Assembly (NCBI GenBank): GCA_013375455.1
Contig: JABXJT010000016.1
Location: 16,856-80,855, forward strand
DNA length: 64,000 bases
Origin: Candidatus Helarchaeota archaeon
Lineage (GTDB): Archaea; Asgardarchaeota; Lokiarchaeia; Helarchaeales; HEL-GB-A
Direction of reading: 5' to 3'
Positions 14,958 through 51,600 of the stretch are shown here, one piece after another (position 1 is the stretch's first letter; each line of letters opens with the position of its first letter). Under the pieces are notes generated by a model that made no database searches, had not been told where the DNA came from, and worked only from the letters and a program-made list of their open reading frames with translations. The translations under genes and the position numbers were made by a program.

Positions 14958-16220
14958 TTATTTCCAGAAGCTTTTAATGAACTGGTCTTCTTTTTTATCA
15001 AAATTAAAATAAGCACCAATTCTTTTTGCCATTTCAGGATTATGTTGGTATATCATGCTAAGAAAGGGTAAATATTCAGCAACTGCTTTAGAGATGCCGA
15101 TTTGAAGCTTATTTCTTATTTTGGCACCAATCGATGCCATATCACCTCGTCTGAGTTTGCTTAGATTTTGAAAGAAAAATCGGGGAAAGATAGAATAATA
15201 ATTCACAAAATGATAGGGAGATTTTGTTCGTGCTAGAGAAACACCTGCAGATAATTCTAATGAAAAATATGGAAAAAGTTTCCAAATACTTTTTTCAGCT
15301 TTACGTTGGATGCGTCCCCAAATAATATCAGCATTCGATAAAGCTCGATAAGCAGCGGCAATCTCTTCAGGTTCGTGCATGTGTTCTGGAATTAGTTCAT
15401 TGATTCGTTGCATGAGTAAGCCAAAGTCACGGGTGCTTAAATCAACTTGCCAGAGAATTTTTTGAATTGTTCGAACATTTTGTTCTTTGAAAATGACTCT
15501 AAGTGCCTCAAACAACGTTTTTTCTTCATCGCGGATTTGATGGAGATTCTCTAGGTCGTCTATTGAAAGAGAACTCTTACCTTCCGCCACGCTCTGTAAA
15601 TCATTTATGGCAGCTCTCAAGTCGCCCTTTGCATTTTCACTTATTTGCATCAATACTCTGTCATCATGCTCGATATTCTCCTGTTTGCAGATTTTTTTCA
15701 AGGTTTTTGAAATCGTATTTTTCTGAATTGATTTAAATTTAACTTGCTGAACGTTCCGTTTCAATGTGGAAAATTTTTGGTCAGAAAGATCGTTTGCAGT
15801 TAATATAATAGGATTTCGTGTATCTTTAATTATTTTAATAAGTGCTCCAATACCGCCACGATCTTGCATCCCGCTTATTCCATCGACTTCGTCTACTAAA
15901 ATTATAGTCCCTAAATTACCTTTAATGGATTTTTTCATTGCAGCAGTTCCGACAATACGTTTTATTTTTGCTTGATTCCTAACATCGCTTGCATTTATTT
16001 CAAATAGATCAAAATTATATTTAGTAGCTAGGACATACACTGCTGCCGTTTTTCCTGTTCCAGGGGGCCCCACAAGAACAATTGCTTTGTCTTTTGAGGT
16101 TTTTCTTCGATAACTAGCAAGAAATTCGTTGATCCTTTTTACAGCAGAAGGATTTCCAACAATCTCTCCTTCCTTTTCAGGGAAATACTTTTGGGTCCAG
16201 ATTTCAGATTGAGTTGCCAT
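14958..16220 (-). CDS. rfcL: Replication factor C large subunit
   Basis: Clamp-loader large subunit. The N-terminal AAA domain has Walker A VGPPGTGKTAAVY and Walker B TIILVDEVDGIS, with the RFC box IWTQKYFP at the start. After the AAA and lid regions comes the RFC-L specific C-terminal collar. The final residues contain a Phe-rich tail (DQFIKSFWK) that could contact the PCNA clamp in the manner of a PIP box. I chose the ATG at 16220, which is preceded by GAGG at a good distance; the frame opens five codons earlier at a TTG. It lies 16 bases after the stop of the RFC small subunit gene, so the pair forms one operon. Confidence 0.94.
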   Translation of the reverse strand: MATQSEIWTQKYFPEKEGEIVGNPSAVKRINEFLASYRRKTSKDKAIVLVGPPGTGKTAAVYVLATKYNFDLFEINASDVRNQAKIKRIVGTAAMKKSIKGNLGTIILVDEVDGISGMQDRGGIGALIKIIKDTRNPIILTANDLSDQKFSTLKRNVQQVKFKSIQKNTISKTLKKICKQENIEHDDRVLMQISENAKGDLRAAINDLQSVAEGKSSLSIDDLENLHQIRDEEKTLFEALRVIFKEQNVRTIQKILWQVDLSTRDFGLLMQRINELIPEHMHEPEEIAAAYRALSNADIIWGRIQRKAEKSIWKLFPYFSLELSAGVSLARTKSPYHFVNYYSIFPRFFFQNLSKLRRGDMASIGAKIRNKLQIGISKAVAEYLPFLSMIYQHNPEMAKRIGAYFNFDKKEDQFIKSFWK

Positions 16221-16236
16221 AAGATCATTCCTCAAA

Positions 16237-17312
16237 TTAATTGAGATTTAATATACCTAATTGAGCTAAAAAGGCGCTTAAATGGATCTCTTCATTTGCT
16301 CCTTGTTGAATCCGCAATTCATATTCTCCAAGTAAATCAAATAAGTGAATCTTCCATTCCTCGGGAATGGGTAATTTTATTATTGCTTGACGCATGTGAT
16401 CAGTTATTTGATTCCCAATTAATCCGTATTTAACGAATAATTCACGAAGTTTGTCTCTAGCCGCAGTGAATTCTTTACTTAAGGCGAGAGCAATCGTTTC
16501 TTTCACTTTAAAATCTATATATTGCTTTGTTACTTTATGAACCGAATCTGCGTCGACTTCTTGCCCTTCATAAACTGAAGATACGGCTTGAAGCAGATTT
16601 ATGCTCCGAATCATATTATTTTGCCCCAAATAGATAATTGATGATAGTGCCGCGTCGTTTATTGCAATTTTTTCTGCCGACACAATATACCGGAGGATAG
16701 CGGCCGCGTTTTCCTTGGATAAGGGATTGAAATGTAAAATAACAAATCTTGATCGAATTGGGTCGATTATTTTGGAAAGATTTTCACATACGAGACAAAA
16801 TCGACAGGTACGCGTGCTTTTCTCCAGAGTTCGACGTAGGGCTTGTTGGATGTTCATAGTTAAATTATCAGCATCTTTGATAATAAGGACGCGGAAAGGG
16901 ACTTCAGATAATGACCGCATCATGGGATAGTTACGAAAGATACTTTTAAATATGTAATTGAGTCCAGGAGTTCCCGAATTCTTGCGCTTATATTCCTGTT
17001 CAGCAAGATCATACCATTTTCGCTTAAATTTCATTAAATAATCTTTCGAATCATTAGCATTGATTTCTTCAACATTCAAATAAAATGATTCCTGAAATAT
17101 GTCATGTAATAAACTTAATATCGTGGAGGTCCTGCCTTTAGGCGAGGAATTTTCAATTACTCTGTACCTGGGGGACCAACCAACAATAAATGGGGTAAAT
17201 TCCTCTTCTTAGTAAAAGCTTTTAATTGTGGTAACTTATCATCCATCCCAATTAGATTCCGCAACGTCATTGGGCGATATTTTTCTGTCCATATTTCACT
17301 CTCTCTAAGCAT
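16237..17312 (-). CDS. rfcS: Replication factor C small subunit, degenerate ATPase site, interrupted by a 26-nt BHB intron
   Basis: Read straight through, the frame from the ATG at 17312 stops after 51 codons inside Walker A (…VGPPGTE, stop). The remainder of the protein, from the segment after Walker A to the C-terminus, continues in a different frame from 17137. Removing bases 17138-17163 joins the two (149 nt + 901 nt) into 349 codons, the normal RFC-S length, giving GPPGTGRTSTIL. The removed bases fold as a canonical bulge-helix-bulge (see separate entry). The protein has the RFC box IWTEKYRP, then Walker B VLIIKDADNLT and SRF in place of the SRC motif (about 179-181). Lys-to-Arg in Walker A and DE-to-KD in Walker B suggest a non-hydrolysing paralogue. 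Sequencing error or pseudogene is the alternative. Confidence 0.85.
17138..17163 (-). other. Predicted BHB (archaeal-type) mRNA intron within rfcS
   Basis: On the minus strand the junctions fold as a hBHBh' motif. The central 4-bp helix is AGGT with GCCT (one T-G wobble). The two 3-nt bulges are ACA and AAA. The intron helix is GAG-T-AATT with AATT-C-CTC and loop GAA. The outer exon helix is CC/GG, extended by GGTCC/GGACC across a small internal loop. Cleavage after the second base of each bulge removes exactly 26 bases, which restores the reading frame with a phase-2 junction in a Thr codon. This is what archaeal tRNA-splicing endonuclease recognises. Confidence 0.8.
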
Positions 17313-31059: not shown

Positions 31060-34000
31060 TCAGTACTTACTGTTTAGTTTAGTTTCTTCTTTCTTTTTGT
31101 TTTTAGATTTCGAGGTATCAGTGGGAATGGGTTGAAAAATGCCGAGTTGCCATAACCTATAAATGTCCCCGACAATCTTTAATTTTGATTCCAGTTGAGC
31201 AGAAACTGCCGTGGATAATAACTTGGCAAGATGAAAATGCCCTTGATCTTCCTCGAAACCCATTCCAAGAGCAATTAATGCGGATTCAGTTTTTGCCAAC
31301 TTCGGAATTTGATTTAGATTAGACATGTAGACTCTTTGGGGCAGGACCAAATCCACTTCGAGATGCCTTTTGATCATATTATTAGCATTCGGTTGAAATA
31401 TATTTATTTCACCCTTAAAATCCGTTAAGTTCTTCCGATACGTGTCTTCGAACTCTTTAAGGAAATTGGAAATATTTTTTCTCGTATATTTTGAGATTTT
31501 CTTTTCCGATAACAGCGTATAATTGGTCAATTCACCAGTAATCCAGAAAATCTCCAAGTTTTCGTAGGCTAATTCCCACCCTCCATCTACGGCTGGTTTG
31601 TCCGTTTTTATGATTCCCCCTTTAAATGAAGAAATAGCATTTAAAAACCCTGCGATTAATACTGGATTGATCTCTGAAGAGCTTACGGGATATTCAACGA
31701 TTGGCACGCCATTCTGTTGAAAAATTAACATCATATATACCATATTATGAACGTCTTCGAATTTTGAAGCGATTTCTTCCAATCTTTTAAGCTCTCGCCG
31801 CTTCCTAGGCCGTTTAACTCTAAATTCATAGAGAACCACTCCGGCTACTACTATAGCCAGTATGCTTCCCCAAATTGGGGAAGTTCTTTCAATAAGAGTG
31901 AGGATCGAAATAACGTTTATTTCAATGGGTCCAGTACTAGTAGCGTTAATATAACTCAAACCTTCATCATATTTGACAGTAATTTCGACTTTACTTATCC
32001 CAGATGGTATTTTCAAGGAAATGGATGCCTTTCCTTCTATATTTGTCCCTGAAACTTTTGTTTCACTTGCTGATTCATCATAAACGAACGAAAAAGTAAT
32101 AATCTTATTTTCTGCAGGTGTTCCATTGATTTTCAAAGTAGCGGTTATCTCTAGATTTTCTCCTTGCATTATTTCGGCGGGTAGAGGGCTAAGGGTTAGC
32201 GTACTATTTAATTTAATAATTGGGATGACCGAGCTGGTAATAGTGATATTTTGATTTTCGGCAGTTCCAGGATATTCTATTATTATCTGAGTGGAGTTCA
32301 TTTGTGCAAGAGCTTCACCCGTGATTTCTGCAATCCCAGAGGAGTTTGTGATTTGGTATGAGGGGTCTTCGAGCGCTCCAGGTTGGAAAATAAATTTAAT
32401 ATTTAGGATTGCATTTGAAATGGGGGTTCCATTGAGATGCGTCAATCTTGCATATAATTGGAAGTTGGTTCCTGCCAGGAAATATTCAGGTTCCGCTAAA
32501 ATTATGAGATTTACTTCATTCCGCGGGATAATATACAGTGAAATATTAGTGATTGCAAATTCGTGTTCTGATGAGAAGGCAGAGATGGTTATATTATATG
32601 ATTGCCCTTCATTAACTCCTAAAGCTGACAGATCTAATAGTATTTGATAAATTCCAATTGTAGGGGCGAGCAATGTCATATTTTGGCACAAATTTCCAAC
32701 GCAAATAGTGCAATTTCCACTCAATGCATCTACAGTAAAAATTGGTTGATTATTATAGGTATCTCGAAATATAATTTGAATAAGTAGGGATTCCTGCAAG
32801 TACCCAGAATATGATGGTTGTAAGGGCTCGATTCGCGTTGGAAGTTTCCTAATAGGGACTATAATAAAGAGTTCCGCAGCAATAAAACCAATTTGCTGGA
32901 TTGTGATCCTTAACGTGTGATTAGTTCCTGAGTGAAATCCAGTTACGTCAATAGTGATATTATAATAGCCAAAAAAGGCAGGAATCCAACCAATCGGAGG
33001 TCCCTCACCAAGCCAAGAACCTGATATTATCCCATTTTTTAAAGGGTCAAGAGTTTGATTATCATAGTAAAAGATGGTTACCCTCACGGTAGAATTATGG
33101 TAGGGGGCTGGATTTGCCAAGGCATGAGTTTGATTAATAAAATCTAAACCCACACAATTAGGAGCAGTGATACTTATATTGGAGAGCATGCCTCCAACAG
33201 TCACGCTGATATCTGAAATTTCGCTTGAAAGATAGAGAGGTTTTGATAAATTAACAGAAAAATAATGTGCACCTCCAATTACTCCAAATGTTGAAATTTC
33301 AATCCTATATGTCCCATTTAAATAGTCATCAGCTATTTGGAAGGGTGCTGGCCAAGTGTTGCCGTCAGAACTATTTTTTACTAATAAATCGGCATCAATA
33401 AGAGGCTCCCCTGTATAATCATTGGAATAATTTACGAATACGAAAATGGAATCCCCCGAGTCTACGATGCTAGTATGTGATTTGTAAGTTACGTTGGTTG
33501 GAATGTTATTGATAGTTAGAGATGATGTTCCTATCCCCGCAGATGTTCCATTGTACCAAGCAACCTGTAATGATGCAGACGTAAATGATCCTGTTGAAGT
33601 ATTAGTAGGTGTCCATGAAGGATAGAATTTTATTGTTTTATTGGTGGTGATTGCCTCCCCAAGTGTATCGTTATAATTTGCTGCTAGAGGAAAAATGGTT
33701 AGATTGGCATCACCTGTTGTTAAAATATCAGTAAAATTTCCATAAATTTCGATCGTGTCAGTGCTATTTATTTCTGAAACGGTGATTCCCGACCGCTTTG
33801 CATAAACACCCTCAAGATAATTCGTATCGTTACACTGGATCGTCCATGTTCCATTTTCAGCGTCGGAGATTGATACGAAGATTCTTTTCGAACCATCACT
33901 AGTTGAGTTCCACAGACTGTGTGGACTAGATTCTTTCCACACGTTTATTGCCATTTTCCACGCTGGAAGGGAAAAATTCAATCGTTTTTCAAATGAATTT

Positions 34001-35088
34001 GCAAGAAAAGTTGCATCATAGGAGGCATTCCAAATGATTGCACTGGAATCCAGTCCTTCAAAAGTGGTTGTAACGACGTGGCTGTTTGTTTGACTATATG
34101 AAATAATATATTCAACTGAAAAATAAGCAGAAGAATTTGCAGAGAATTGAAAGTTTAACGTGGTATTAGAAAATTCGAAGGTTGAAGTCCAACTCCCATC
34201 AGCCCGGGTTGTATCGATTACAGAGGAGCCATTAATTTTTAAATCGACATCTGATGGGGTTCTAGAGTTATTCCTCAAACCTACCCTTAATGTGAAGTCC
34301 CAGGGTTGTACAAGCCAAGCTGGCCCTTCGAACTCCACAGCGATTCCATTATCATCTCCAGGACCGTCGTTTTCATAAACCCATCTAAGATTGCCTTGGA
34401 ACCCTTGTTCCTTAGAACCGTTAATTACGATGAAAAAGGCATTAGCATAGGTATTTTGCGCATCTAATTTTACAGGAGACGCAAAACTAAAGTCATCCCA
34501 TCCAGCTGATGGTGGTTTGCCATAAGTTTCATTATAAAGCAGAAAATCGGGGACGGGAAAACCACTTTCCTGTGTTGCGTTAAAAACACTTACATTGACA
34601 CCCGTGCTTTTCCATACAGTTTCCCAGTAAACTGAGACATTATACAGCAAGGCCGTCGAAATTATGTTAAAGCTCATCCCAAAATCTTGTTCAACAGTAT
34701 CTGCCCAGTTGGATTCAATTACGTCTTCTTCAACTACCAGAATATCCGTTTCTTTAAGGACTTCGGTGACGGTGATGTTTGAGTATTTAGCTACCCATGA
34801 AGTAGGAATTGGAACATTGAAACTTGAGTTTGAAGTCAGAAGACCTACAGTTCCGCTTTGATTACAAATCAATGTAACGTTGGCAGGCAGACCTTGACCC
34901 GTGATTTTTCCATCGGTTGATGTGAGTCCCGTGTTTTTTTGAAGAATTGGTTCTCCGGAGTTCGGTTGACGCTCAATTATTGTTGTAGCATTAGCATTAT
35001 TATTGTTTTGATAAAAAGCAAATCCAGCTCCAAGAACAGGCACTAAAAGAAGAAAGAGAAGAAAAAGAACTCTTGTATTTCTTCGCAT
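31060..35088 (-). CDS. Giant surface membrane protein with longin-like cytoplasmic domain (copy 1)
   Basis: A 1342-residue type I membrane protein. Signal peptide at residues 1-25 (LFLLFLLLVPVLGAGF). The extracellular part of about 1040 residues is beta-rich, with many N-glycosylation sequons and Ig-like/invasin-like repeats (pattern GTPISNAILNIKF... and GTPAENKIITFSF). A single membrane helix lies at about 1066-1089 (WGSILAIVVAGVVLYEF) followed by a very basic stretch RVKRPRKRRELKR. The cytoplasmic tail of about 250 residues starts with a longin/roadblock-like fold: strand MVYMMLIFQQNGVPIVEY, helix NPVLIAGFLNAISSF, then WELAYENLEIFWITGEL. It is flanked on both sides by small GTPase genes, which suggests GTPase recruitment or exchange at the membrane. 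The longin assignment is inference from pattern. Confidence 0.8.
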   Translation of the reverse strand: MRRNTRVLFLLFLLLVPVLGAGFAFYQNNNNANATTIIERQPNSGEPILQKNTGLTSTDGKITGQGLPANVTLICNQSGTVGLLTSNSSFNVPIPTSWVAKYSNITVTEVLKETDILVVEEDVIESNWADTVEQDFGMSFNIISTALLYNVSVYWETVWKSTGVNVSVFNATQESGFPVPDFLLYNETYGKPPSAGWDDFSFASPVKLDAQNTYANAFFIVINGSKEQGFQGNLRWVYENDGPGDDNGIAVEFEGPAWLVQPWDFTLRVGLRNNSRTPSDVDLKINGSSVIDTTRADGSWTSTFEFSNTTLNFQFSANSSAYFSVEYIISYSQTNSHVVTTTFEGLDSSAIIWNASYDATFLANSFEKRLNFSLPAWKMAINVWKESSPHSLWNSTSDGSKRIFVSISDAENGTWTIQCNDTNYLEGVYAKRSGITVSEINSTDTIEIYGNFTDILTTGDANLTIFPLAANYNDTLGEAITTNKTIKFYPSWTPTNTSTGSFTSASLQVAWYNGTSAGIGTSSLTINNIPTNVTYKSHTSIVDSGDSIFVFVNYSNDYTGEPLIDADLLVKNSSDGNTWPAPFQIADDYLNGTYRIEISTFGVIGGAHYFSVNLSKPLYLSSEISDISVTVGGMLSNISITAPNCVGLDFINQTHALANPAPYHNSTVRVTIFYYDNQTLDPLKNGIISGSWLGEGPPIGWIPAFFGYYNITIDVTGFHSGTNHTLRITIQQIGFIAAELFIIVPIRKLPTRIEPLQPSYSGYLQESLLIQIIFRDTYNNQPIFTVDALSGNCTICVGNLCQNMTLLAPTIGIYQILLDLSALGVNEGQSYNITISAFSSEHEFAITNISLYIIPRNEVNLIILAEPEYFLAGTNFQLYARLTHLNGTPISNAILNIKFIFQPGALEDPSYQITNSSGIAEITGEALAQMNSTQIIIEYPGTAENQNITITSSVIPIIKLNSTLTLSPLPAEIMQGENLEITATLKINGTPAENKIITFSFVYDESASETKVSGTNIEGKASISLKIPSGISKVEITVKYDEGLSYINATSTGPIEINVISILTLIERTSPIWGSILAIVVAGVVLYEFRVKRPRKRRELKRLEEIASKFEDVHNMVYMMLIFQQNGVPIVEYPVSSSEINPVLIAGFLNAISSFKGGIIKTDKPAVDGGWELAYENLEIFWITGELTNYTLLSEKKISKYTRKNISNFLKEFEDTYRKNLTDFKGEINIFQPNANNMIKRHLEVDLVLPQRVYMSNLNQIPKLAKTESALIALGMGFEEDQGHFHLAKLLSTAVSAQLESKLKIVGDIYRLWQLGIFQPIPTDTSKSKNKKKEETKLNSKY

Positions 35089-35830: not shown

Positions 35831-38800
35831 TCAGTACTTACTGTTTAGTTTAGTTTCTTCTTTCTTTTTGTTTTTAGATTTCGAGGTATCAGTAGTAATG
35901 GGTTGAAAAATGCCGAGTTGCCATAACTCATGAATATCCCCGACAAGCTTTAATTTTGATTCCAGTTGAGCGGAAACTGCGGTGGATAATAACTTGGCAA
36001 GGTGAAAATGCCCTTGATCTTCCTCGAAACCCATTCCAAGAGCAATTAATGCGGATTTAGTTTTTGACATCTTCGGAATTTGATCCAGATTTGATATATA
36101 GACTCTTTGGGGCAGGACCAAATCCACTTCGAGATGTTTTTTGATCATGTTATTAGCATTAGGTTGGAAGATTTTTATATCGCCCAAAAATTGCGTTAAT
36201 TCCTTCCGATATGTGTCTTCGAATTCTTTAAGGAAATTTGAAATATTTTTTCTCGTATATGTTGAGATTTTCTTTTTCGATAACAGCGCATAATTGGTCA
36301 ATTCACCAGTAATCCAGAAGATCTCCAAGTTTTCGTAGGCTAATTCCCACCCTCTATCTTCGGCTGGTTTTTCCGTTTTTATGATTCCCTCCTTAAATGA
36401 AGAAATAGCATTTAAAAACCCTGCGATTAATACTGGATTGATCTCTGCAGTGCTTACGGGATATTCAAGTAATGGCACGCCAGTCTCTTGAAAGATTAAC
36501 ATGATGTAAACCATGTTATGAACGTCATCGAATTTTGAAGCGATCTCTTCCAATCTTTTAAGCTCTCGCCGTCTTTTTGGTCTTCGGTACTTAAATTGAT
36601 AAAAAGCTGCACCTATAACCACGCCCACTACAGCACTCCCCCAATAGGGCGAGTATCTTGCAATGAGAGTCAATATTGTAATAACTTCTAATTCAGCTGT
36701 GATGCTCGTGCTGTTTTTTATGTAACTAATTGGTCCCTCATAAGAAGCAGTGACCTTAATTTCACCAATTCCTGAGGGGACGTTGAGAGTGACAGTTGCT
36801 TTTCCATCCGAGTTGGTTTCCGCCACTTTTTCGGTGATTAAATTTGTTCCATCCGTAAAAGTGAATGTGACTATTTGGTCAGCTGCAGGGGTTCCATTGA
36901 TTCGCAACGTAGCTGTGACTTCTAAATCTTCACCCACTAATATATCGCCAGGGAGGGGGCTCAAGATTAGAGAACTATTTAAAATGATTATTGGAATGGA
37001 TGAACTTGTAAGCGTGGTATTTTGATTACCCGTGCTTCCCGAATATTCTATGATGATTTGGATGGAGTCCATTGATGGGTTGGTGTCTCCGATTATTTCG
37101 GCAATCCCGGATGAATTCGTGATTAGGTTAACGGGGGTGGTTTCGAACGGACCTGGTTGAAAGCGAAATCTCGTATTGAGAATGGCGTCGGAAATAGGCG
37201 TTCCATTCACATAAGTCAATTCCGCATATACTTTGAATTGCATTCCCGCAAAGAAATATGCCGGTATGGTCAAACAAGTTAAAGTCACTGCATTTCTTGG
37301 AATGATATAGAGTGATACGTTCACCATGGCAAGTTCATGTTCTGATGAAAAAGCATATAGGGTAATGGTATAGGTCTGTCCCTCTTCGACTCCCAATAGG
37401 GATAAATCTAACACGTATTGATAAATTCCTACTAATGGAATGAGCAATGACATATTGTCGTAAAAACTTCCTATTTGAATCGTACAATTTCCACCTAATT
37501 GATAGACTGACGGGATAGATTCGTCATGGTGAGTGTCCTGAAAAATTGCGGAAATTACGAGGGTGTCCTGAAGATAACCTGCATAATTCGGTTCCAACGA
37601 TTGGATGCTGGTTGGAAGTTTTCTTGTTGGAACGATGATATACAGGGTTGCAGGGTCATAACCAGCTTGTTGAATCGAAACCCTTAGTGTGTGGTTTGTC
37701 CCCGCTTGAAATCCGGTGACATCAATTGTAATATTATAATAACCGAAAAAAGCCGGTACCCATCCTACTGCAGGACCTCCACCAACCCAGGTAGCGGTTA
37801 TGATTCCGCTGCTCAAGGCTTCAAGCGTCAAGTTACTGAAATAATAAATCCTTACTTTAACGCTTGAATTGTGGTATGGTGCCGGATTTGTAATAGCGTA
37901 TGATTTATTTAGAGAATCCAATCCGATGCAGTTTGGAGCAGTGATGCTTATATTAGAAGCACCTCCTACCACTCCAATCGTAAAGCTGAGGTTAGCATAT
38001 TCACTCGATTGATGGAGAGGTTTTGAGAGGTTGATTGAGAGAAGATACGATCCTGAGGTCAGGCCCAACGTCGATATCGCGATTTGATACGTCCCATTCA
38101 AATAATCATTGGAGATTTGGAAAGGAGCAGGCCAGATTGTATTGGAAGTGCTGTTTTTGATTAATAAATTAGCCCCTATCAGCCCCTCTCCCGTGTAAAC
38201 ATTTGAAAAATTGACATATGCGTAAATAGACTCTCCTGATTGAACATTACTAGTGTGAGATTTATAGGTGATATTCGTAGGGATGTAATTTACGGTTAAG
38301 ATCGTAGTGTTAATGCCCGCCGCTGTACCATTGAACCATATTACCTGCAAACGCGCAGCTGGGTAAGAACTCAGGGCGGTATCATTTAATCTCCACTCAG
38401 GAGTAAATTTTATGCTTCTATTATTCGTTATAGCTTCCCCTACAGTATCATTATAATATGCTTCTAGTGGAAATACAGTTAAATTCGCATCTCCGCTAGT
38501 AAGGATGTTAGTAAAGTTACTAAAAACCTCGATAGTATCAGTCCCATTCACCTCAGAGACTAGGATACCACTACGTTTTATATAAACACTTTCGACATAA
38601 TTAGTATCATTGCATTGGATTGTCCATGATGCGTTCGCTGCGTCGTTAATGTGGACTTGCCTAGATGACCCAAGGAGACTTGAATTCCAATCTGCGTGTA
38701 AAGTTTGGTTTTTCCAAACATTAATTATTGACTTCCAGGCGGGAATTTCAAAAATTAATTGGTTATTAAGCGAACCTGCCAAGAATGAGGCGCCATAGGT

Positions 38801-39892
38801 CGCATTCCAAAAAATGATGGGATCCGTATCATATCCAGTAAAATAAGTATAAACGCCATAGTTAGAGGTTAATTCATGAGTCATAGACCATTCTACTAAA
38901 AAAGTGGCGGATTCATTCGCAGAAAAGACAAATGTTATTGACCCACTATGATTGTTATAAACAGATGTGGAAAGCCACTCGCCATCATTATAGTTTTTAT
39001 CGGTTACTAGAGTACCATTGATTTTCAAGCCAATTTCAGAAGGAGATTTTGACACATTAATCAATCCCACTTTTAAAGTGAAATCCCAATCCTTAAGGAC
39101 CCAGGTAGAGCTTAAATATTGATAAGCAGCACCATCATCTACTTCTCCACTATCCGTTTCATAACCCCAATTAAAACCAGCTGGACCTCCCCCAAGTGTG
39201 CTAGTAAGAACAACAAAAAATGCATTCCCATAAGTATTTGAAGGATTCAATTCCACAGGTGATGAAAAAGTAAAATTATACCATTTACTGATATGATCTT
39301 CATATGGTATATCGCCTCCTGATTCCGAATAATATTCAGAATATAATTCTGAATCAGGAGCTGGTTGCGAAGCCTGTAATGTTGCATTATAAACCTGCAC
39401 CGTTATATCTTCAAGTCTATCGATATCTTGTACATACATAGAAAAATTTGTTATTTTCGTAGAAGCGCTCACATTAAATTGCATTCCAAATGTTTTGTCT
39501 CCTATATCTATTCTATCTCCTGTACTGTTATCCTCTATTATGACAATATCGGTATCTCGAATGATATTGATAATAGTAATATTAGAAAAAACAACCGACC
39601 ATGGAATGGGAACGGAAACTTCAAGACTTGCACTTGAATTTTTAGGAATAGGACCTCCGGTTTTATTACAAATCAACGTAGCGTTAGAGGGAAGCCCAGT
39701 GCCAATTATTTTTCCATCGGTTGATGTGATGTCTGTATTTTTTTGAAGAATTAGTCCTCCAGAGTCCGGTTGACGCTCAATTGTTGTTGTAGCATGATTA
39801 TTACTGGTTTTTTGACAAAAAGCAAATCCAGCTCCAAGAAGCGGTACTAAAAGAAGAAAGAGAAGAAAGAGAACTCTTGTATTTCTTCGCAT
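35831..39892 (-). CDS. Giant surface membrane protein with longin-like cytoplasmic domain (copy 2)
   Basis: A 1353-residue paralogue of the gene at 31060 with the same order of parts: signal peptide (LFLLFLLLVPLLGAGF), long extracellular beta-rich region with many Asn-x-Ser/Thr sequons, one membrane helix (WGSAVVGVVIGAAFYQF) and a basic juxtamembrane run followed by the longin-like tail (MVYIMLIFQETGVPLLEY...NPVLIAGFLNAISSF). The tails of the two copies are almost identical, the extracellular parts are not, so the inner domain is conserved while the outer one varies. This is the pattern expected of receptors with different ligands but one shared internal output. Confidence 0.8.
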   Translation of the reverse strand: MRRNTRVLFLLFLLLVPLLGAGFAFCQKTSNNHATTTIERQPDSGGLILQKNTDITSTDGKIIGTGLPSNATLICNKTGGPIPKNSSASLEVSVPIPWSVVFSNITIINIIRDTDIVIIEDNSTGDRIDIGDKTFGMQFNVSASTKITNFSMYVQDIDRLEDITVQVYNATLQASQPAPDSELYSEYYSESGGDIPYEDHISKWYNFTFSSPVELNPSNTYGNAFFVVLTSTLGGGPAGFNWGYETDSGEVDDGAAYQYLSSTWVLKDWDFTLKVGLINVSKSPSEIGLKINGTLVTDKNYNDGEWLSTSVYNNHSGSITFVFSANESATFLVEWSMTHELTSNYGVYTYFTGYDTDPIIFWNATYGASFLAGSLNNQLIFEIPAWKSIINVWKNQTLHADWNSSLLGSSRQVHINDAANASWTIQCNDTNYVESVYIKRSGILVSEVNGTDTIEVFSNFTNILTSGDANLTVFPLEAYYNDTVGEAITNNRSIKFTPEWRLNDTALSSYPAARLQVIWFNGTAAGINTTILTVNYIPTNITYKSHTSNVQSGESIYAYVNFSNVYTGEGLIGANLLIKNSTSNTIWPAPFQISNDYLNGTYQIAISTLGLTSGSYLLSINLSKPLHQSSEYANLSFTIGVVGGASNISITAPNCIGLDSLNKSYAITNPAPYHNSSVKVRIYYFSNLTLEALSSGIITATWVGGGPAVGWVPAFFGYYNITIDVTGFQAGTNHTLRVSIQQAGYDPATLYIIVPTRKLPTSIQSLEPNYAGYLQDTLVISAIFQDTHHDESIPSVYQLGGNCTIQIGSFYDNMSLLIPLVGIYQYVLDLSLLGVEEGQTYTITLYAFSSEHELAMVNVSLYIIPRNAVTLTCLTIPAYFFAGMQFKVYAELTYVNGTPISDAILNTRFRFQPGPFETTPVNLITNSSGIAEIIGDTNPSMDSIQIIIEYSGSTGNQNTTLTSSSIPIIILNSSLILSPLPGDILVGEDLEVTATLRINGTPAADQIVTFTFTDGTNLITEKVAETNSDGKATVTLNVPSGIGEIKVTASYEGPISYIKNSTSITAELEVITILTLIARYSPYWGSAVVGVVIGAAFYQFKYRRPKRRRELKRLEEIASKFDDVHNMVYIMLIFQETGVPLLEYPVSTAEINPVLIAGFLNAISSFKEGIIKTEKPAEDRGWELAYENLEIFWITGELTNYALLSKKKISTYTRKNISNFLKEFEDTYRKELTQFLGDIKIFQPNANNMIKKHLEVDLVLPQRVYISNLDQIPKMSKTKSALIALGMGFEEDQGHFHLAKLLSTAVSAQLESKLKLVGDIHELWQLGIFQPITTDTSKSKNKKKEETKLNSKY

Positions 39893-50568: not shown

Positions 50569-50671
50569 AGCCCCTGACGGGATTTGAACCCGCGATTTGT
50601 CCATAACCAATCGATTTGATCATGTCCAACAGCTTACGAGGCTGCCGCTCTACCAGCTGAGCTACAGAGGC
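50569..50671 (-). tRNA. tRNA-Thr (anticodon CGT) with a 30-nt intron in the variable loop
   Basis: Acceptor GCCTCTG/CAGGGGC, D arm GCTC...GAGC, anticodon arm GCAGC-CTCGTAA-GCTGT giving anticodon CGT, T arm GCGGG-TTCAAAT-CCCGT and discriminator T, as usual for archaeal tRNA-Thr. The anticodon arm is intact, so the extra 30 bases lie after position 46. Removing 50596-50625 leaves the standard five-base variable loop TGGTC. CCA is not encoded. Confidence 0.93.
50596..50625 (-). other. Non-canonical BHB intron of tRNA-Thr(CGT), position 46/47
   Basis: The junction folds as a bulge-helix-bulge: central helix TGTT with GACA (one T-G wobble), bulges GGA and AAT, and an eight-base intron helix CATGATCA with TGGTTATG (loop AATCGAT). 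Cleavage after the second base of each bulge removes 30 nt. The outer exon helix is weak, as in the relaxed form of the motif. Confidence 0.82.
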
Positions 50672-51494: not shown

Positions 51495-51600
51495 GGGCTC
51501 GTAGCTCAGCTAGGCAGAGCGTCGGACATTCGGAAATAATTCTGGATGGGTGAAGCTCTTAACCCGATGGTCGCGGGTTCAATTCCCGTCGAGCCCGCCA
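51495..51600 (+). tRNA. tRNA-Lys (anticodon CTT) with a 29-nt intron in the anticodon stem
   Basis: Acceptor GGGCTCG/CGAGCCC, discriminator G and an encoded CCA (51598-51600). D arm GCTC...GAGC, T arm GCGGG-TTCAATT-CCCGT. The genomic anticodon region makes no stem until 51526-51554 is removed; then TCGGG-CTCTTAA-CCCGA forms, with anticodon CTT. Followed by a T-run (51601-51606) that could end transcription. A TATA-like TTTGTATATC lies about 40 bases upstream. Confidence 0.94.
51526..51554 (+). other. Non-canonical BHB intron of tRNA-Lys(CTT), position 30/31
   Basis: The bulge-helix-bulge is clear: exon helix AGAG/CTCT, central helix CGTC/GGTG (two wobbles), bulges GGA and AAG, intron helix CATTC/GGATG with a further GAA/TTC hairpin inside the loop. 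Cutting after the second base of each bulge removes 29 nt and restores the anticodon stem. Confidence 0.85.

What the first reader, a model, noticed from the sequence alone, without database searches (positions are those of the whole stretch)
17138..17163. BHB intron inside the Walker A codons of an RFC small subunit gene (protein-coding archaeal intron)
The rfcS gene is broken by 26 bases that introduce an in-frame stop inside GPPGTG-R-T. The same bases fold into a near-canonical bulge-helix-bulge: four-pair central helix AGGT/GCCT, two three-base bulges, an internal helix and an exon helix. Cutting at the standard sites restores a 349-residue protein without losing or gaining a base. Established knowledge: protein-coding BHB introns are rare in archaea (best known in cbf5 of Crenarchaeota). 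Two non-canonical tRNA introns in the same window (50596-50625, 51526-51554) fit the same splicing enzyme.
Basis: partly seen in the sequence, partly recalled or inferred. Interest (0 to 1): 0.93.

Follow-up and report, generated by a model that had tools for sequence, protein, structure and literature searches.

The report
Spliced messenger RNA in Asgard archaea
A replication gene of Helarchaeota (Asgard archaea) is cut in two by a tiny 25-27-base insert with the shape that archaea use to splice transfer RNA, which suggests that these relatives of eukaryotes also splice some messenger RNAs.

Summary
A 26-base insert (17138-17163, minus strand) breaks an RFC small-subunit gene inside its Walker A codons; removing it at standard bulge-helix-bulge (BHB) sites gives a 349-residue protein. 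Relatives settle what it is. Hel_GB_A (Helarchaeota, Asgard) has 25 other bases at the same codon, genome G002 (38% protein identity) 27; both form canonical BHBs with compensatory pair changes. The lengths leave all three remainders mod 3, so only excision repairs all three. Fourteen short database proteins end just after GPPGT; seven share contig lengths with exon-2 proteins. Intact copies suggest losses. EndA and RtcB occur in all four genomes held of Hel_GB_A's order. Hel_GB_A has a second interrupted gene, a radical SAM enzyme with a 28-base BHB intron. Passages I saw name cbf5 of Crenarchaeota as the only confirmed pre-mRNA case. Caveats: no RNA evidence; folding stability is ordinary (z -1.2 to -1.75; G002 untested); this RFC-S is probably a second paralog. 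New member of a known kind, in a new phylum and new genes.

The parts
17164..17312 (-). exon 1 of the RFC small-subunit gene (149 bases, from ATG; ends GGT AC inside Walker A)
   Evidence: substitution pattern; 14 homologous truncated proteins
17138..17163 (-). 26-base BHB intron with in-frame TAA stop near its 5' end
   Evidence: same position in L001 and L051
16237..17137 (-). exon 2 of the RFC small-subunit gene (901 bases including stop); the ORF listed by the ORF listing starts only at a TTG at 17079
17166..17169 (-). BHB central helix, 5' strand AGGT (exon 1)
   Evidence: L001 has GGGT/GCCC and L051 GGGA/TCCT
17140..17143 (-). BHB central helix, 3' strand GCCT (intron)
17163..17165 (-). 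5' bulge AC|A, predicted 5' splice site between 17164 and 17163
17137..17139 (-). 3' bulge AA|A, predicted 3' splice site between 17138 and 17137
17160..17162 (-). inner helix 5' strand GAG
   Evidence: 20 C minimum; 37 C centroid; not in the 37 C minimum
17144..17146 (-). inner helix 3' strand CTC
   Evidence: 20 C minimum; 37 C centroid; not in the 37 C minimum
14958..16235 (-). RFC large subunit gene directly downstream on the same strand; co-transcription is an inference
   Evidence: NF003229 above its cut-off (351.9 against 280 bits)
50596..50625 (-). 30-base non-canonical BHB intron of tRNA-Thr(CGT), a likely substrate of the same enzyme
51526..51554 (+). 29-base non-canonical BHB intron of tRNA-Lys(CTT)

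Best explanation
It is a protein-coding archaeal BHB intron. The rfcS pre-mRNA folds so that the last codons of exon 1 pair with the 3' end of the intron; the tRNA splicing endonuclease EndA cuts after the second base of each three-base bulge, the 26 bases are released, and a ligase (RtcB or a relative) joins the exons, restoring the P-loop GPPGTGRT and a 349-residue RFC small subunit. Shown by sequence: the interruption, the BHB geometry, exact repair, conservation of position with covarying helices and changing length, intact copies in other lineages, EndA and RtcB genes in related genomes. Inferred: that the RNA is cut and joined in the cell, which ligase acts, and that the early stop keeps unspliced message from giving more than a 51-residue peptide.
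For: Exact repair. Same codon interrupted in Hel_GB_A by 25 bases and in G002 by 27, both with canonical BHB; central pairs A-U, G-C, G-U at one position and U-G, U-G, A-U at another; inner helices differ (GAG/CUC, GAUAU/AUAUC, UGAAA/UUUCA). Shuffled-intron controls: 75, 59 and 70 of 100000. Lengths 26, 25, 27 need different frame shifts, so only excision works for all three. In 14 of 14 exon-1 hits the protein ends 1 to 7 residues after GPPGT, in 11 of 14 as GPPGTE; P0007, P0012 and P0015 begin with 2 to 5 residues that fit the intron's 3' end and read on into G-R/K-T. dN/dS of exon 1 about 0.1, of the next 20 codons about 0.08 (dS 2.4 there is saturated). EndA family in 4 of 4 and RtcB in 4 of 4 genomes of the order; two EndA paralogs, one with and one without the histidine I recall as catalytic, in 3 of 4. 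tRNA introns of the same kind in the window. Second interrupted gene in Hel_GB_A.
Against: No RNA data. Folding energies are ordinary (z -1.21 and -1.60 for rfcS of window and Hel_GB_A, -1.75 for the radical SAM case; G002 not tested this way). In the window the 37 C minimum-energy fold is not the canonical one. The window's whole genome is not held, so EndA and RtcB of this very organism were not seen; in G001 only the EndA paralog without the histidine was found. P0002-P0006 and P0021 lack the interruption, so the intron is not needed for the gene. Only three intron DNA sequences were read; the rest is judged from protein ends.
Confidence: 0.93

Rival explanations
1. Gene decay: the copy is a pseudogene and a second RFC-S does the work.
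For: Hel_GB_A has a second, intact RFC-S.
Against: dN/dS about 0.1 in exon 1 and 0.08 just after the junction; no other frame break in 349 codons; same codon broken by different bases in relatives.
Confidence: 0.02
2. Sequencing or assembly error.
For: Only one DNA contig of this organism was read here.
Against: The cluster of the exon-2 protein P0001 has 2 members on 2 contigs (clustered at 90% identity, one may be the window's own contig); the break recurs with different bases in other genomes.
Confidence: 0.01
3. Translational bypass or programmed frameshift: the ribosome skips the 25-27 bases.
For: A hairpin sits in the gap, as in known bypass elements (recalled).
Against: Gap lengths 25, 26, 27 need three different shifts; the codons flanking the gap do not match as take-off and landing codons (ACA against AAA in the window, ACA against AAT in L001; read directly); the BHB geometry on the junction would be unexplained.
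Confidence: 0.02
4. Split gene: two polypeptides (51 and about 280 residues) that assemble.
For: Databases carry them as two proteins.
Against: The split would lie inside the P-loop; of the 20 codons from the junction up to and including the listed start codon 15 are identical in amino acid to Hel_GB_A with changes mostly at third positions, so they seem to be translated; unbroken homologs exist.
Confidence: 0.02

Closest known systems
cbf5 pre-mRNA introns of Desulfurococcales and Sulfolobales (Crenarchaeota)
   Same: BHB at the exon-intron border, cut between second and third bulge residues, frame restored, lineage-specific loss (PMC2738675, passages including parts of the abstract seen)
   Different: Other gene and phylum; the passage calls the cbf5 structures, two species excepted, unconventional BHBs, whereas the rfcS ones are near-canonical; no cDNA evidence here
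[quoted passage not shown]
   Same: mRNA cut by the splicing endonuclease at BHB sites (PMC7714728, passages seen)
   Different: Lies outside the reading frame; not a coding intron
Non-canonical tRNA introns of Atabeyarchaeia and Freyarchaeia (Asgard)
   Same: Asgard hosts with many introns at non-canonical tRNA positions (PMC11291895, passages seen)
   Different: tRNA; the passages seen mention no protein-coding intron
Predicted intron-like indels in rudivirus SIRV1 genes
   Same: Putative introns in other protein-coding genes had been predicted (PMC2738675, passage; cited paper Peng 2004 seen only as a reference)
   Different: Virus genes; short indels (content recalled)

Membership tests
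Archaeal BHB pre-mRNA introns | Insert breaks a reading frame that is intact in homologs | tested here: met
Archaeal BHB pre-mRNA introns | BHB with two 3-base bulges and 4-bp central helix exactly at the border | tested here: met
   the 37 C minimum-energy fold of the window is slipped
Archaeal BHB pre-mRNA introns | Cut after second base of each bulge restores the protein | tested here: met
Archaeal BHB pre-mRNA introns | Structure conserved by compensatory change | tested here: met
   three DNA sequences only; compared by eye and by pairing score, no covariation statistics run
Archaeal BHB pre-mRNA introns | EndA and a 3'-phosphate RNA ligase in the organism | tested here: inconclusive
   family hits in 4 of 4 related genomes; the window's genome is not held
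Archaeal BHB pre-mRNA introns | Spliced mRNA seen | not testable with these tools
   no RNA data in reach
RFC small subunit | Hit to a curated model above its cut-off | tested here: inconclusive
   exon 2 alone: best hit NF001679 at 219.5 bits, under its cut-off of 303; best PDB sequence hits are RFCS 1iqp and 2chq; the spliced protein was not scanned

The most novel reading that the evidence does not exclude
Helarchaeota splice a small class of messenger RNAs, not just one: EndA-spliced, 25-28-base coding introns recur in unrelated genes (clamp loader, radical SAM enzyme), the rfcS one is old in the lineage, and an early in-frame stop (most exon-1 products end GPPGTE) silences unspliced message, so that splicing could act as a switch on a clamp-loader subunit.
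Probability: 0.5. Interest if true: 0.9.

Novelty: new member of a known kind. Interest (0 to 1): 0.83.

Why it matters
It would be the first coding BHB intron outside Crenarchaeota with comparative support that my searches turned up; it lies in the archaeal group held to be nearest to eukaryotes (recalled), and it hits the catalytic loop of a replication protein. It shows how gene calling can split such genes silently into two database proteins, and it makes archaeal mRNA splicing testable in Asgard metatranscriptomes. Presence, absence and length change at one codon give a natural experiment on how such introns arise and vanish.

Tried and rejected
Exon-2 protein alone as query in genome contigs found no relative; an alignment query found 44 loci, of which 1 (L001) is titled Helarchaeota. 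A scan of viral contigs with that archaeal alignment found none. Other interrupted genes in the window: a lax ORF-joining screen gave 76 joins, 25 listed. Of the three longest joins, Pfam (10 ORFs) shows one (48369) to be two different genes; for the other two (53028, 58027) one partner had no Pfam match, so they are judged gene borders only by position.

Wider screen of 1,548,868 bases (window 64,000; G001 1,196,164 of about 3.8 Mb; G002 288,704). The filters miss the window's own intron, because the exon-2 frame stays open upstream through it (24 codons). A revised filter, tuned after seeing the known introns (AA in the 3' bulge, 45 bases or less), gave 13 of 379 joins, with the four introns described here at ranks 1, 3, 4 and 8. 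The other nine I judged by eye as out-of-frame joins or gene borders; they were not tested by homology, L095:1312 (rank 2) included. Sets shown (23 joins; 11 joins) held nothing that I found convincing, also by eye. A coding-score filter was too strict and a fold filter too harsh; both were dropped. A second intron position near residue 122, suggested by the short proteins P0022-P0025, was not needed: start choice or contig ends can explain it. Fold stability as an argument was dropped (z above -2).

Full report
What is there. On the minus strand an ATG frame at 17312 encodes MLRESEIWTEKYRPM...LLVGPPGT and meets TAA one codon (GAG) later; the rest of the protein, GRTSTILSLLHD..., continues in another frame after 26 extra bases. 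Removing 17138-17163 gives 1050 bases without inner stop, 349 residues. The RFC large-subunit ORF as listed starts two bases past the end of the rfcS stop codon. The exon-2 part is RFC-S-like: its best curated hit is under the cut-off, but only exon 2 was scanned.

Whose it is. Of the 25 best-matching proteins the named ones are from Helarchaeota or Promethearchaeota (Asgard archaea); no genome is held for the window. The named relative reached as DNA is Hel_GB_A (L001, in G001).

The structure. Written 5' to 3': CC. AGGT. AC|A. GAG...CTC. GCCT. AA|A. GG, that is outer helix, four-pair central helix, three-base bulges and inner helix, the cuts falling after the second base of each bulge. In Hel_GB_A: CCC. 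GGGT. AC|A. GATAT...ATATC. GCCC. AA|T. GGG, 25 bases. In G002, whose protein is 38% identical to the window's: TCC. GGGA. AT|T. TGAAA...TTTCA. TCCT. AA|A. GGA, 27 bases. Two central pairs change on both sides and stay paired; the inner helices differ. With the intron letters shuffled and the exons fixed, 75, 59 and 70 of 100000 trials place a canonical BHB on the junction. The unconstrained minimum-energy fold at 37 C is canonical for G002, has the outer helix slipped by one C for Hel_GB_A, and has both outer and inner helix slipped for the window, where the centroid and the 20 C fold have the canonical inner helix. Total stability is not exceptional: 27, 14 and 9 of 200 shuffles fold as well for window, Hel_GB_A and the radical SAM case.

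Why excision. The lengths 26, 25 and 27 leave remainders 2, 1 and 0; in G002 the insert keeps the frame but carries TGA. No single frameshift or read-through event can serve all three, and removal serves each. Exon 1 between window and Hel_GB_A has dN 0.127 and dS 1.286, and the 20 codons from the junction up to and including the listed start codon of exon 2 have 0.191 and 2.414, the latter saturated; both look like translated sequence.

How widespread. Of the 25 best-matching proteins (P0001-P0025, 59% identity or more; 120 of 565 hits were listed), 6 run through the Walker A unbroken (P0002-P0006, P0021), 3 begin with a few residues that fit the intron's 3' end and read on into G-R/K-T (P0007, P0012, P0015), and 16 start further down. 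Starting further down alone proves little: P0020 and P0024 do so although they group with intact genes. The decisive search was for exon 1: 14 of 14 hits are 51-57 residues long and end 1 to 7 residues after GPPGT, 11 of them as GPPGTE. That search can only return proteins of about 28-89 residues, so it selects broken genes, and the stop codons themselves are not visible. Seven of the 14, Hel_GB_A among them, share the listed longest-contig length with an exon-2 protein (2581, 2004, 20972, 39579, 5851, 17653, 130048), and one such pair carries the locus names ACTSQI_08320 and ACTSQI_08325. Of the four genomes held of Hel_GB_A's order, two have the intron (G001, G002) and two have unbroken homologs at 40 and 37% identity (G003, G004). 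In the tree the intact close relatives form one clade, plus P0021, a partial protein that sits beside Hel_GB_A (87/84), so two losses are the simplest reading; the base of the group is unresolved and G002 is a long branch, so repeated gain and the depth of the gain are open. The other genomes of the class (83 searched, 79 with a match) were not read one by one at the Walker A.

The machinery. EndA (PF01974) is found in 4 of 4 and RtcB (PF01139) in 4 of 4 of these genomes. In G002-G004 there are two EndA paralogs, one with the tyrosine, histidine and lysine that I recall as the catalytic set, one without the histidine; in G001 only the latter was found, perhaps because the assembly is incomplete. 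This would fit a heteromeric enzyme of broad specificity, by recalled analogy with Crenarchaeota. The window carries two tRNA genes with BHB introns at unusual positions.

A second gene. A screen for BHBs that join two frames pointed to a site in Hel_GB_A: L115:10955-10982 (-), 28 bases, GCAC. AA|A. GAATTGAAA...TTTCAATTC. GTGC. AA|T, splitting a gene at PSGT^IFFESC (rank 1). Database names of its homologs are radical SAM protein or pyruvate formate lyase-activating protein; curated models hit only weakly, under their cut-offs. Eleven homologs with 74-80% identity (P0121-P0131) cover its full length; seven of them were aligned, and all seven read PSGTIFFESC without gap. P0132, listed on a contig of 21007 bases (the Hel_GB_A contig has 23359), begins within what is intron here. 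Its outer helix is weak (two pairs) and absent from the minimum-energy fold.

What is known. In passages I saw, PMC7714728 says that only the cbf5 mRNA of Crenarchaeota had been reported with an additional BHB intron; PMC4810243 says archaeal pre-mRNA introns are confined to those Cbf5 genes; PMC2738675 (2009) says splicing was confirmed for no gene but cbf5 although introns in other genes had been predicted. Listings for protein-coding BHB introns (29 of 29 papers listed; 20 of 28), Asgard with intron terms (13 of 13), Helarchaeota with intron (3 of 3), RFC with BHB (15 of 89), cbf5 and pre-mRNA intron (15 of 158) and Asgard with tRNA intron (15 of 116) showed no title or abstract start on a protein-coding BHB intron in Asgard archaea; I looked inside seven papers, in passages only. 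Subscription papers and preprints are not in that library.

Verdict. A conserved coding intron (0.93), unproved at RNA level; a new member of a known kind in a new phylum and new genes, with signs of a small class.

Noticed in passing
L115:10955-10982 (Hel_GB_A, G001:C108): 28-base BHB intron in a radical SAM (PflA-like by database names) gene, 9-bp inner helix; 11 homologs at 74-80% identity are full length.
   Followed up: yes
window 50569-50671 (-) and 51495-51597 (+): tRNA-Thr(CGT) and tRNA-Lys(CTT) with 30- and 29-base introns at non-canonical positions; ARAGORN on the window did not list the Lys gene.
   Followed up: yes
L076-L082: EndA in G002-G004 comes as two paralogs, one without the histidine recalled as catalytic, like heteromeric splicing endonucleases.
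   Followed up: partly
P0241-P0254: 11 of 14 exon-1 proteins end exactly GPPGTE: the start of the intron seems conserved, perhaps for the helix, perhaps as a translation guard.
   Followed up: partly
L095:1312 (+, G002): 27-base BHB-like site with AA|T 3' bulge joining two frames of 66 and 70 codons; frames look non-coding by eye.
   Followed up: no
window 31060-35088 and 35831-39892 (-): Two large neighbouring ORFs of 1342 and 1353 residues, not identified.
   Followed up: no
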